Below are positions 48,272 through 59,556 of a stretch of DNA of 59,556 nucleotides, piece after piece. The stretch lies in the NCBI GenBank assembly GCA_944322255.1, contig CALUOK010000015.1:1-59556 (forward strand). The letters run 5' to 3'. The notes below the pieces were generated by a model that did no database searches, was not told the origin of the DNA, and saw only the letters and a program-made list of their open reading frames with translations. The translations under genes and the position numbers were made by a program. This DNA comes from Candidatus Methanomethylophilaceae archaeon (GTDB taxonomy: Archaea; Thermoplasmatota; Thermoplasmata; Methanomassiliicoccales; Methanomethylophilaceae). The stretch's first letter is position 1; each line of letters begins with the position of its first letter.

Positions 48272-48670
48272 ATGGTCGCTCTGACCGAACCGGTCGTCAG
48301 GATGATCAAGCATCCCGACACCTCCAAGGTCCTGGCCACGGTCTCCCCCGGAGGGGAGCCCCACGCCATAGTCTGCGGCAGCCTGGACGTCATCGAGCCC
48401 GACACCATCGTGGTGGGCGAGGTCTTCATGCACAGGACGTCCGAGTACCTGCAGAACGACCCCCGCGTCGAGTTCCTGATCTGGAAGGGCAAGTCCGCGT
48501 ACTCCATCAAGGCCATCGCCAAGGGGAGGTACGAGGAGGGCCCCGAGTTCGACAGGATGTCCGCCGCCCTCGACCGCTTCAACATGACGACGGTCGCCGT
48601 CTGGACCTTCGAGGCCCTGGAGGTCTGGGACGAGAGCGCATCCGAGACATCGGGCGACAGAGTGATCTGA
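48272..48670 (+). CDS. Pyridoxamine 5'-phosphate oxidase-like protein
   Basis: A 132-residue split-barrel flavin-type protein. It shows SKVLATVSPGGEPHAIVCGS, EVFMHRTSEYLQNDPRVEFL and GKSAYSIKAIAKGRYEEGPE, the common pattern of PNPOx-related proteins that bind FMN or F420. The activity is not known; in methanogens such small barrels often use F420 or FMN. It overlaps the next gene (TGATGG). Confidence 0.72.
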   Translation: MVALTEPVVRMIKHPDTSKVLATVSPGGEPHAIVCGSLDVIEPDTIVVGEVFMHRTSEYLQNDPRVEFLIWKGKSAYSIKAIAKGRYEEGPEFDRMSAALDRFNMTTVAVWTFEALEVWDESASETSGDRVI

Positions 48671-55519: not shown

Positions 55520-56500
55520 TCAGCTCGAGGGCCCGGACTCCGCATCCCTCGCCAGCTCCCTCTCCATGCGCCTCCTGTTGAACAGGACGGAGTCCATGAA
55601 GATGACCCAGCAGATCTCCACCACGATGGACGTGGCTATGGCCACCATCGCCAGCGACGCCATTGGGCCCAATGTGGCGGCGCACATGGCTATGGCTATG
55701 CCCTTGTTCTTGTAGGAGGCCATCAGGATGTCGGCGACCCTCTGCCCCCAGGGCAGCCCGGCGCGCCTCTCGGCCACCTCGATCACGTTGCCCAGACCGA
55801 AGGACCTGAGGGCTGCGATGACCGCGAACACCACCAGGATCGACACCGTGGAGGTGGAGAAGTTGGTGGAGCCCACGGAGAGCCAGACCAGCACGAATAT
55901 GCAGCAGTTCATGAAGATGGACATGAAGTCCCTGCTGAGCTCGAACCTGGTGAGCAGCCTGGACACGACCAGCGGGATGGCGATGATCTCCACCACCGCG
56001 ATCAGCACCTGCATTATGTCGACCGTCTCGCCGAGGGCCAGCCAGACCACGAAGGGGATCCACACCAGCGACGCCACGTACACGTAGATGGTCCCCCTGG
56101 CGGCGTGCTCCATGTCGCCCCTGAGGATGTAGGACAGGGGTGCCACGGAGGCCGCGAACGGGGTGGCGGCTATGAACACGAGACCGGCGGCCTCGGCCCC
56201 GAAGTCGGAGTCCTTCAGCAGGAAGTACCCAAGCAGGGGGATCACGGACGAGACCACCAGTCCCATCAGCACAGCCCTGAGCACCGACTTCCAGTGCGTC
56301 ACCGGGTTCAGGTTGCTGAACCTGTACCTGGACAGGGATAGGGTCATCATCACGGCTAGAAGGAACACCGTCAGGTTGGACCTCAGGTCGGCATCCAGCG
56401 TCTCCGATGGGAAAACGCCTGCGAAGTTCGTGAGGAGGGCGATGATCAGCGCCATTGACATCATGAACGCGCTGCTGCCCAGCAGTGCCTTGGGCGTCAT
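55520..56500 (-). CDS. Bile acid:sodium symporter (BASS) family transporter
   Basis: A 326-residue membrane protein with about nine or ten TM helices. The start is ATG 56500 (TPKALLGSSAFMMSMALIIA) with a TATA (ATTTATAAG) roughly 30 bases upstream. BASS/SBF-type features include AGLVFIAATPFAASVAPLSY and YKNKGIAIAMCAATLGPMAS. Members transport organic acids or other anions with sodium; substrate unknown. The basic C-terminal tail (NRRRMERELARD) is cytoplasmic. A longer open frame upstream is spurious. Confidence 0.75.
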   Translation of the reverse strand: MTPKALLGSSAFMMSMALIIALLTNFAGVFPSETLDADLRSNLTVFLLAVMMTLSLSRYRFSNLNPVTHWKSVLRAVLMGLVVSSVIPLLGYFLLKDSDFGAEAAGLVFIAATPFAASVAPLSYILRGDMEHAARGTIYVYVASLVWIPFVVWLALGETVDIMQVLIAVVEIIAIPLVVSRLLTRFELSRDFMSIFMNCCIFVLVWLSVGSTNFSTSTVSILVVFAVIAALRSFGLGNVIEVAERRAGLPWGQRVADILMASYKNKGIAIAMCAATLGPMASLAMVAIATSIVVEICWVIFMDSVLFNRRRMERELARDAESGPSS

Positions 56501-56711
56501 GAGGATTCCGGAACATTTGCGGCTTATAAATCGCTGACCCCGCCGGAGATAGTTCCGATTCCCCGCATCCGTTGTCCATTTACCGAAAACCTTTAAAAAT
56601 CTCTGGCTGGAGACGGTTTCGGCGGTTAGATTACATAGGCCCACCCATCCAACTCTGCGCCCTATGATATACTTTGGAGCCCTATGGTTAAAAGTTGGGA
56701 GGTCAGGTACA

Positions 56712-58961
56712 ATGAGCACAAGGGTAAGGAGGGGTTCCGGCTCCGCTGGAATCGTCCCTCCGGAGTCGTTCCCCGGGGACGTCATACGGTACCACGGGGT
56801 CGCTCCCGAGCGCCCCTGTGACATAGCGCCACCGGACGGTCCGGTGTTCCACACGGACATGGACGACGACCTCCTGCAGTCGTACCTCACCTGGAGACGG
56901 GAGATCGCCGACCGCGGCGAGCCCGCCCCCTACTACGGGTTCATATGGCTCCGCATCTGCGAGCTCCTCAACGACCCCCTGATCGGGGCCGAGGAGGCCC
57001 TGGACGAGGTGCTGTGGCTCAACCGCCGCTTCTCAGGGAACTACACCCTGGCCGTCCTCACCGCCAGCGCCGCCAAGGACATGTGCCTGGTGATGGGGAG
57101 GAGGTGGCCGACCCAGATCCTCTGGACCGGAGGGTACCTGAGGGACGCCGCGTTGGCCGAGGCCGTCATGAGCGACCCGGTGCCGGACTTCCCGTTCCCC
57201 GTGATAAGCAGGATGTGCGGCATGGACGTGCTCAAGAACGTCACCGACCGCACCGAGTTCTGCGCCACCTTCTCGGAGTGCATGCGCGCCATCATCTCCA
57301 TGGAGAGGGGCGCCGACCCCCACCTGTTCGGGCCCGAGTGCTTCACTGAGAGGAAGGTCCTGCTGTTCGACGGGTTCGTCTACTACGGCGAGCCCAGGTA
57401 CGTCACCGCCAGGGTGATGAGGCTGGACGGCCCCGGCAGATGGAAGGACATCTTCCGCGGCCTGGCCGCCACCGTCTACTCGTCAATGTACTGGAGCAGG
57501 AGCGACATCCCCTGGAGGGAGGCCCTGCTGCTCACCGACGCCCAGGCGGAGCAGGTCAGGCTGGCCATGGAGGACGAGGCCGAGGCCCCGGCGGACCCGG
57601 AGCGCGAGAGCGTGGAGTGGGTCCCGGGCACCCAGGAGGACGAGGGCTTCCCCCTGAACCCCACCGTGTTCGAGGACCTGAGGGCCAGCATGACCCATCC
57701 CCGGAAGGACTCGCTGAGGGCGTCCATAAGGATCCACATCGGGGAGGCCGGGAGGAGGGACGCTCCGTTCGTGCCGTCGGGATGCTGGTGCGCCTGCTAC
57801 GACGACATGAGCCGCGAGCAGCTGGACTTCTACCTGTCGTGGAGATCCGAGGTGCTGGCGGGCAACTACAGGGACACCGACCGCGGCTACCTGTGGCTGC
57901 TGCTGTGCGAGCTGGTGGACTCGGAGAACGAGCCCATGCGCCGGATGTCGATCCTGAACGGCCTGCTGAGGGCCTACGGGCAGTCGTCCGACTCCATCAA
58001 GGGCATGATCATGAGGACCTGCCAGGACTACGCAATAGTCACCGGCCAGGACCCACCCTGGGACGGGTCGGACCGCGACCTGCAGCTGCTGCTGTGGGTG
58101 AAGCTGGACATAGACCCGGTCGGGAGGGTGCCCCTGGAGATGGCCGCGTCCGTGGTGGACGTGGACGTCGAGAGGTACTGCACCGGCGACGCCGACTACG
58201 ACACCGCCTTCAACATCGCCCTCAGGACCCTGGCCGCCAAGGTCCACAGGACCAGGGGCATGACCCTGGCCGAGACCCTGAGCGGGAGGATGAAGACCGT
58301 CTACAGGAAGCTGTTCCCCGGACTATCCACCGACTGGGGCAGCTGCAGCCTGACCGTATGCGAGATCCGTCCCTCCAACAGCGGGGGGAGGATGCTGTCC
58401 TTCGCCCTGAAAACGGCGATCACCTGCGTGAACACCAGGCTCGGCCTCAGGCACCCGAGGGTGCACGCCGACGCCGACCCGGAGCTGCTGGCCGCCATGG
58501 AGGCGGAGGTGGGCAAGTGGCTGGACCGCCAGGAGCGCGCCCGCAGGGTGGAGATGATAAGGAGGGAGGCGGCAGCCATAATCCTGGACAGCGGCGCCGT
58601 CGCCGACGCCGAGACCGACCTGGCCGCCGTCAGGGACATGGTCGGCACAGAAGAGGACATGGAGGTTCCGGAGGAGGAACCCGCCGTCGCCGAGGCGCCG
58701 GCATCGAGCAACACGCCGTGGGACGACCTGGCCGGCACACTGGACGACGTCCAGATGGGCTACCTGGCCGCGTCCCTGGAGGGCAGGGGCGACTCGTTCG
58801 CCAGGACCTCCGGCAGCACCGCCGTCAGACTGGAGGACGGCATCAACGCGGCCGCCATGGACACCGTGGGCGACCAGATAATAGAGGACGGGGAGGTCTT
58901 CAACGAGTACGCGGACGACGTCCGCAGGATACTCGCCGAGGTCCCCGTCGAGACAGGGTGA
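56712..58961 (+). CDS. TerB_N-TerB_C protein with duplicated TerB_N
   Basis: A 749-residue protein. Residues 45-125 match TerB_N (LQSYLTWRREIADRGEPAPY, then YGFIWLRICELLND). A second copy lies at about 375-450 (LDFYLSWRSEVLAGNYRDTD, then RGYLWLLLCELVDS), so the domain is duplicated. The C-terminus (about 560-749) matches TerB_C, ending LEDGINAAAMDTVGDQIIED. In bacteria, TerB_N/TerB_C proteins are linked with a DUF2791 ATPase and a helicase in phage-defence or stress clusters. GGGAGG 9 bases before ATG 56712 supports the start; the frame open to 56664 extends into the promoter. No metal-binding TerB core domain was seen. Confidence 0.78.
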   Translation: MSTRVRRGSGSAGIVPPESFPGDVIRYHGVAPERPCDIAPPDGPVFHTDMDDDLLQSYLTWRREIADRGEPAPYYGFIWLRICELLNDPLIGAEEALDEVLWLNRRFSGNYTLAVLTASAAKDMCLVMGRRWPTQILWTGGYLRDAALAEAVMSDPVPDFPFPVISRMCGMDVLKNVTDRTEFCATFSECMRAIISMERGADPHLFGPECFTERKVLLFDGFVYYGEPRYVTARVMRLDGPGRWKDIFRGLAATVYSSMYWSRSDIPWREALLLTDAQAEQVRLAMEDEAEAPADPERESVEWVPGTQEDEGFPLNPTVFEDLRASMTHPRKDSLRASIRIHIGEAGRRDAPFVPSGCWCACYDDMSREQLDFYLSWRSEVLAGNYRDTDRGYLWLLLCELVDSENEPMRRMSILNGLLRAYGQSSDSIKGMIMRTCQDYAIVTGQDPPWDGSDRDLQLLLWVKLDIDPVGRVPLEMAASVVDVDVERYCTGDADYDTAFNIALRTLAAKVHRTRGMTLAETLSGRMKTVYRKLFPGLSTDWGSCSLTVCEIRPSNSGGRMLSFALKTAITCVNTRLGLRHPRVHADADPELLAAMEAEVGKWLDRQERARRVEMIRREAAAIILDSGAVADAETDLAAVRDMVGTEEDMEVPEEEPAVAEAPASSNTPWDDLAGTLDDVQMGYLAASLEGRGDSFARTSGSTAVRLEDGINAAAMDTVGDQIIEDGEVFNEYADDVRRILAEVPVETG

Positions 58962-58986
58962 GCGACTCACCCATCGGGAGATTCAG

Positions 58987-59547
58987 ATGACAGAGATACC
59001 CAGGAGGACGCTGGTCACTATGATGAACGCGCTGTCCTCCGGCGTGGTCCCCCGCAGGGGACTGGAATACATTGCCGTAGGAAGGAGGAAGGAGACGGAG
59101 ACCTTCGTCAACGACCTGGAGGACACCGCCGAGGGCGGCGGGGCGTTCAGGTTCATATCCGGGAAGTTCGGGAACGGCAAGAGCTTCATGATACAGATGA
59201 TCCGCAACTACGCCATGGACCGCGGGTTCGTGGTGATGGACGCGGACCTGGCCATTAACCGCAGGCTGACCGGCAGCAAGAGGGAGGGCCTGAACACCTA
59301 CCGCGAGCTGGTCCGCAACATGGCGGTGAAGTCCCGTCCCGAGGGCGGGGCGATGGAGCTGGTGCTCCAGAGGTGGATAGACGACGTCCGCCAGAGGATG
59401 TCGGCGGAATCCAACAGGGGGATCAACAACCTGCGCCCGGAGGCGGTGGCCGAGAGGCTGAAGAGGGAGACCTCCGGCATGAGCGGCATGACCTTCTACC
59501 AGGACTTCGCCTCGGTGGTCGCCGCGTACTGCTCCACGAAGGTCTGA
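58987..59547 (+). CDS. DUF2791 (BrxD-like) P-loop ATPase, apparently truncated
   Basis: The frame gives 186 residues of a P-loop ATPase. It begins MTEIPRRTLVTMMNALSSGV and has PRRGLEYIAVGRRKE and Walker A FISGKFGNGKSFMIQMIRNY, followed by VVMDADLAINRRL. This matches the DUF2791/BrxD family of BREX-type and TerB-linked systems, normally 400 residues or more. The frame ends at TGA 59545-59547, nine bases before the window ends, much too early and without Walker B. The bases after it (CGC TGG CTC) would read RWL, like the family's RWLRGE block; alternatively, the +1 frame near 59525 reads HEGLTLA. Frameshift, nonsense mutation or assembly error are possible. GGGAG sits 6 bases before the ATG. 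Confidence 0.65.
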   Translation: MTEIPRRTLVTMMNALSSGVVPRRGLEYIAVGRRKETETFVNDLEDTAEGGGAFRFISGKFGNGKSFMIQMIRNYAMDRGFVVMDADLAINRRLTGSKREGLNTYRELVRNMAVKSRPEGGAMELVLQRWIDDVRQRMSAESNRGINNLRPEAVAERLKRETSGMSGMTFYQDFASVVAAYCSTKV

Positions 59548-59556
59548 CGCTGGCTC

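What the first reader, a model, noticed from the sequence alone, without database searches (positions are those of the whole stretch)
56712..59556. TerB_N/TerB_C plus DUF2791 ATPase at the edge of a possible defence island
Two adjacent plus-strand genes (26 bases apart) encode a TerB_N-TerB_C protein and a BrxD-like ATPase, gene types that occur with helicases in bacterial anti-phage clusters. Here they sit in a methanogen next to ordinary housekeeping genes. The partner helicase, expected downstream, lies outside the window. If complete, it would be an archaeal version of a poorly studied system.
Basis: partly seen in the sequence, partly recalled or inferred. Interest (0 to 1): 0.75.

Follow-up and report, generated by a model that had tools for sequence, protein, structure and literature searches.

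The report
Archaeal Shango defence operon, diversified sensor
The two genes are the start of a complete three-gene Shango antivirus operon in a gut methanogen; the system is known from bacteria, but in this archaeal genus every sampled species keeps it, its presumed sensor protein is doubled and unusually variable, and in three sister species that gene carries an amber codon that is probably read as pyrrolysine.

Summary
Window 56712-58961 is SngA (TerB_N/TerB_C). 58987-59532 is the first 182 codons of SngB, a BrxC/BrxD-type ATPase. The contig ends inside sngB; the in-frame TGA at 59545 lies in a 24-base non-homologous contig tail. Another contig of the same genome (C13) resumes at SngB residue 188 and continues into SngC, the expected helicase (SngC model E=6e-186, ahead of BrxHI). 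So this is Shango, a published anti-phage system, in a methanogen of the family Methanomethylophilaceae, complete but split over two contigs.
What is new is the archaeal form. All 31 genomes of the genus have SngA and SngB hits, against 11/31 for Cas1 and 25/31 for RpoB. The operon lies where conserved core synteny meets a variable region. SngA evolves far faster than SngB (median identity 24.5% against 69%) yet stays under purifying selection, usually has two TerB_N modules where 15 bacterial SngAs have one, and is tandem-duplicated upstream of a single sngBC in several species. In three sister species sngA has one in-frame TAG at the same codon (Tyr75 here); both sides are equally constrained, and the genus encodes pyrrolysine machinery. 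Function and mechanism are inferred, not shown.

The parts
56697..56703 (+). Ribosome-binding-like GGGAGGT ahead of sngA, supporting the start at 56712 rather than 56664
   Evidence: sequence
56712..58961 (+). sngA, 749 aa, TerB_N/TerB_C protein of Shango
   Evidence: Pfam TerB_N 6.9e-8, TerB_C 2.2e-5; PADLOC SngA 6.6e-33
56820..57485 (+). First TerB_N module of SngA (residues about 37-258)
   Evidence: profile-profile match to the second module E=3.7e-35; same order of helices and strands in the AlphaFold2 model
56934..56936 (+). Tyr75 codon TAC; the aligned codon is TAG in the three closest relatives
57774..58442 (+). Second TerB_N module of SngA (residues about 355-577)
58557..58901 (+). 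TerB_C domain (residues about 616-730), with conserved stretches at 626-650 and 701-725
58976..58982 (+). Ribosome-binding-like GGGAGAT ahead of sngB
   Evidence: sequence
58987..59532 (+). sngB, first 182 codons (BrxC/BrxD-type ATPase); continues on contig C13 bases 1-729 (locus L047)
   Evidence: Pfam 1.2e-57, PADLOC SngB 3.1e-61; remainder on C13
59161..59184 (+). Walker A motif of SngB, GKFGNGKS
   Evidence: most of its residues invariant
59533..59556 (+). Non-homologous contig tail holding the in-frame TGA (59545-59547); probable assembly artefact

Best explanation
This is a complete Shango antivirus operon, sngA-sngB-sngC, in a Methanomethylophilaceae methanogen, split by an assembly break inside sngB. 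Proposed working: SngA detects infection through its variable TerB_N modules and docks on its partners through the conserved TerB_C end; SngB, an ATPase of the BrxC/BrxD type, couples detection to loading or control of SngC; SngC, an SF2 helicase of the BrxHI kind, acts on viral nucleic acid or its replication intermediates and stops multiplication. Identity and completeness of the parts are shown here; the antivirus role is inherited from bacterial Shango; the assignment of sensor, switch and motor is inferred.
For: Three Shango models match best and far ahead of BREX models. The own genome has a single SngB, whose two parts (residues 1-182 and 188-429) sit on the facing ends of C15 and C13, followed by sngC with a 4-base overlap. 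The same sngA-sngB-sngC order is seen throughout the genus wherever the contig is long enough, with few exceptions. SngB Walker A and DE motif are invariant in the aligned set and SngC motifs GTSSGKT, DEVH, SAT and QRMGRSGR are intact. All three genes are under purifying selection with SngA least constrained overall (dN/dS A 0.11-0.54, B 0.05-0.18, C 0.07-0.31). SngA variability lies outside the TerB_N core and TerB_C, and one sngBC is paired with one or two divergent SngAs, which fits an exchangeable recognition subunit on a fixed core. Bacterial Shango gives 10-100-fold plaque reduction against many phages (PMC10250203).
Against: The C15/C13 join is inferred from homology; no reads were seen. 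No test of Shango in an archaeon was found. Presence in every sampled species of the genus is unusual for a defence system and allows a housekeeping role. No nuclease or other effector domain was recognised in the three proteins, so how they stop a virus is unknown. dN/dS does not exceed 1, so there is no direct sign of positive selection.
Confidence: 0.72

Rival explanations
1. The operon has been turned to a housekeeping task in this genus, such as clearing stalled replication forks or keeping out plasmids, and is no longer chiefly antiviral.
For: SngA and SngB hits in 31/31 genomes of the genus, more complete than RpoB (25/31) and unlike Cas1 (11/31) or N6 methylase (17/31). Native SngB distances follow RpoB distances (rho 0.74). 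An htpG gene lies within the fetched stretch around the locus in 17 genomes.
Against: SngA is far too variable for a core cellular partner (median 24.5% identity; 28.9% in the pairs where neighbouring HtpG is 76.3%). The system is absent from 27 of 30 genera of the order. The locus borders a variable region. One genus member carries only a bacterial-type copy.
Confidence: 0.15
2. A degraded or partial BREX system (BrxD plus BrxHI).
For: SngB and SngC do resemble BrxD and BrxHI.
Against: Scores for SngB and SngC are far higher than for BrxD and BrxHI; no PglZ in the genome; a TerB_N/TerB_C protein is not a BREX component (general knowledge).
Confidence: 0.02
3. A pseudogenised operon: sngB is truncated by the TGA at 59545.
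For: The window reading shows TGA nine bases before the contig end.
Against: The tail bases match no relative and nothing else in the genome; the rest of sngB and an intact sngC exist on C13; close relatives are intact and under purifying selection.
Confidence: 0.04

Closest known systems
Shango (SngABC) of Pseudomonas aeruginosa PA14 and E. coli (PMC10250203)
   Same: Three genes: TerB-domain protein, BrxC/BrxD-type ATPase, SF2 helicase; best PADLOC models for all three; located at the border of a variable region
   Different: Archaeal; in all sampled species of a genus; SngA usually with two TerB_N modules (27 of 33 genus SngAs against 0 of 15 bacterial), hypervariable and sometimes tandem; amber codon in sngA of three sister species
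BREX (BrxD, BrxHI)
   Same: ATPase and helicase families are related
   Different: No PglZ in the genome; best matches are SngB and SngC; TerB protein present
SF2 defence-helicase clade of SngC, BrxHI, DruE and DpdJ (PMC12278908)
   Same: After SngC itself, the best PADLOC models for this helicase are BrxHI, DpdJ and DruE
   Different: Nothing seen that sets it apart
Predicted pyrrolysine-containing Cas1 of 'Ca. M. alvus' (PMC4153887)
   Same: An in-frame amber codon in a defence gene of the same order
   Different: Here it is in sngA, at one orthologous position in three species, and the window species itself has TAC

Membership tests
Shango | SngA: TerB_N/TerB_C protein | tested here: met
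   PADLOC SngA 6.6e-33; TerB_N over cut-off, TerB_C 25.1 bits against 26.3
Shango | SngB: BrxC/BrxD-type ATPase nearer to SngB than to BrxD | tested here: met
   SngB 3.1e-61 against BrxD 4.4e-25
Shango | SngC: SF2 helicase directly downstream | tested here: met
   SngC 5.7e-186 against BrxHI 9e-113, 4-base overlap with sngB on C13; adjacency to the window inferred across the contig break
Shango | Reduces phage or virus plating | not testable with these tools
   needs an experiment
BREX | PglZ-domain protein | tested here: not met
   no PglZ in the genome
BREX | BrxX methyltransferase | not tested
   no search for BrxX was made
Pyrrolysine-containing proteins | In-frame TAG in a conserved gene of a Pyl-decoding organism, translation continuing past it | tested here: inconclusive
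   TAG at the same codon in three relatives, constraint alike on both sides, PylS in 27/31 genomes over cut-off, tRNA-Pyl in the own genome; no protein evidence; the window gene itself has TAC

The most novel reading that the evidence does not exclude
In this genus Shango has become a resident immune core with an exchangeable, lineage-diversified sensor (two TerB_N modules, tandem sngA genes on one sngBC), and in some species a full-length sensor can be made only if TAG is decoded as pyrrolysine, which ties antivirus defence to the methylamine/pyrrolysine state of the cell.
Probability: 0.25. Interest if true: 0.75.

Novelty: new variant of a known kind. Interest (0 to 1): 0.5.

Why it matters
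The papers found here describe no mechanism for Shango, and none found tests it in an archaeon. A genus in which every sampled species keeps it, with SngA divergence mapped onto a constant SngB and a moderately variable SngC, gives a natural series for finding what SngA recognises and which surfaces bind SngB. Two-module and tandem SngAs make the 'swappable sensor' idea directly testable. The amber codon in sngA offers a clean case of a possible pyrrolysine-dependent immune protein outside the methylamine methyltransferases.

Tried and rejected
Taking the TGA at 59545 as a real stop: rejected. BREX remnant: rejected. Fold search of the SngA model against the PDB: no match with E below 0.001 (pTM only 0.45). 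SngB has no relative in the PDB by sequence. A first RpoB comparison used wrong-frame translations for some genomes and is discarded; one search replaces it. A count of TAG-interrupted genes in all fetched loci is mostly antisense noise; of the hits backed by several relatives, three are sngA and two are other genes in G017 (one further two-hit case in G082 was not judged). Viral contigs: one distant SngB relative (35%), not followed. Gene calling failed for locus L021; its genes were taken.

Full report
What is in the window. Two + strand genes end the window. The first, 56712-58961 (749 aa), matches TerB_N and, just below its cut-off, TerB_C, and matches the PADLOC SngA model at 6.6e-33. The second starts at 58987, 25 bases on, and matches BrxC_BrxD (1.2e-57); its best PADLOC model is SngB (3.1e-61) ahead of BrxD (4.4e-25). 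SngA, SngB and SngC are the three proteins of Shango, an anti-phage system tested in Pseudomonas and E. coli (PMC10250203).

The contig end. The window is the whole of contig C15 as held. From 59533 on, the last 24 bases no longer match any relative and are found nowhere else in the genome; they contain the in-frame TGA at 59545. Contig C13 of the same genome begins at SngB residue 188 and runs through the rest of SngB into a 726-aa helicase whose best model is SngC (5.7e-186; BrxHI 9e-113). The genome holds no second SngB. The simplest reading is one intact operon broken by assembly, with about five codons missing. Adjacency is inferred from homology and not from reads.

Surroundings. Left of sngA, nearly all called genes down to position 48272 have syntenic matches in two to four relatives; the neighbour at 55520-56500 is a bile-acid-symporter-family transporter. 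Right of sngC, none of the 18 called genes in the first 20 kb of C13 is found near the locus in eight relatives. In relative G014 the G+C content falls from 66% in the operon to 38-48% beyond it. So the operon marks a border between core and variable DNA. The right side holds Sel1 repeats, a Fic protein, a type I specificity-like protein, an RNA ligase and many unknowns, but no second complete defence system that PADLOC recognises.

Distribution. The closest named records are Methanomethylophilaceae from ruminant and other gut samples; contigs of equal length tie G015 and G020 of the window's genus to them. In the genus, SngA and SngB profiles hit 31/31 genomes. Controls in the same genomes: RpoB 25/31, N6 methylase 17/31, Cas1 11/31. 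In the order, SngB is in 42/147 genomes and 3 of 30 genera. In a tree, 30 of 31 genus SngBs fall in an archaeal clade together with most of those of two sister genera; G006, G075 and G081 lie among gut bacteria and look like separate acquisitions, with G006 on a short contig where contamination cannot be excluded. SngB distances correlate with RpoB distances (rho 0.74), but only 6 of 17 splits are shared, so descent is partly vertical with exchange or poorly resolved branches.

SngA. Pairwise over 325 genome pairs, median identity is 24.5% for SngA, 68.9% for SngB and 52.2% for SngC; in 105 pairs with HtpG as control the values are 28.9, 70.7, 55.8 and 76.3. In close pairs all three genes are under purifying selection, SngA least overall. 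Conservation in SngA is concentrated in the two TerB_N cores and TerB_C. Residues 30-265 and 345-585 align to each other as profiles with E=3.7e-35, and the AlphaFold2 model (pLDDT 80, pTM 0.45) repeats the same order of elements. A module model finds two copies in 27 of 33 genus SngAs and 6 of 6 native SngAs of sister genus g22, but one in 15 of 15 bacterial and 3 of 3 g5 SngAs; several of the genus exceptions are TAG-shortened or contig-edge gene calls. G017, G026, G010 and G021, and G078 and G082 of the sister genus, carry two sngA genes in tandem before one sngBC. In five of the six the copies share only 18-23% identity (36% in G021), and in G017 and G026 each copy is 52-60% identical to its counterpart in the other genome, so those duplications are old.

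Amber codon. In G014, G023 and G015 the sngA frame has one TAG, at the same codon, aligned with Tyr75 (TAC) in the window. For G014 against G023, dN/dS is 0.13 on both sides of the TAG within module 1. TAG ends only 15 of 531 genes in the fetched loci. The genus has PylS (27/31 over cut-off), and the own genome has tRNA-Pyl next to the pylS gene, with neighbours whose order and length fit a pyl cluster (pylB, C and D were not tested by profile). A predicted pyrrolysine-containing Cas1 is published for a member of the order (PMC4153887). Reading through as pyrrolysine is therefore the likely outcome, but no protein data exist.

Mechanism. The parts suggest a sensor (SngA), an ATPase switch (SngB) and a helicase (SngC). 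The variable SngA on a conserved SngB, and tandem SngAs on one SngBC, support an exchangeable recognition subunit. No nuclease or other effector domain was recognised, so blocking of viral DNA or its replication by the helicase is preferred over cutting. These steps are inference.

Verdict. A new archaeal variant of a known defence system. The surprising parts are the genus-wide retention, the doubled and hypervariable SngA, and the amber codon in sister species.

Noticed in passing
L021:6296-6298 (G014); L022 (G023) and L023 (G015), sngA codon aligned with window 56934-56936: One in-frame TAG at the same codon of sngA in three species, constraint alike on both sides; pyrrolysine machinery present in the genus.
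   Followed up: partly
L031 to L035 (G026, G017, G029, G025, G001): A second, two-gene locus: a short protein with the SngA TerB_C end plus an SngB-like ATPase (about 45% identical to SngB), no sngC, near mtmB in the loci examined; in G026 the ATPase frame has about 320 extra residues at its C-terminus.
   Followed up: partly
L111 (G002), SngA residue 711 of the read-through frame: Another in-frame TAG near the C-terminus of SngA (SEDYA-TAG-DVLRML).
   Followed up: no
L047:10278-19859 (own contig C13): A run of minus-strand genes of no known family right of the operon, several with similar stretches, possibly a lineage-specific family expansion.
   Followed up: no
L246:4481-5365: Gene in the presumed pylD position of the own genome appears to end in TAG, unusual for a genome that decodes TAG.
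   Followed up: no
L113 and L114 (G006): Bacterial-type Shango, SngB nearest to a Lachnospiraceae sequence, on two short contigs: recent transfer or contamination of the assembly; the sngC reading appears broken in two.
   Followed up: no
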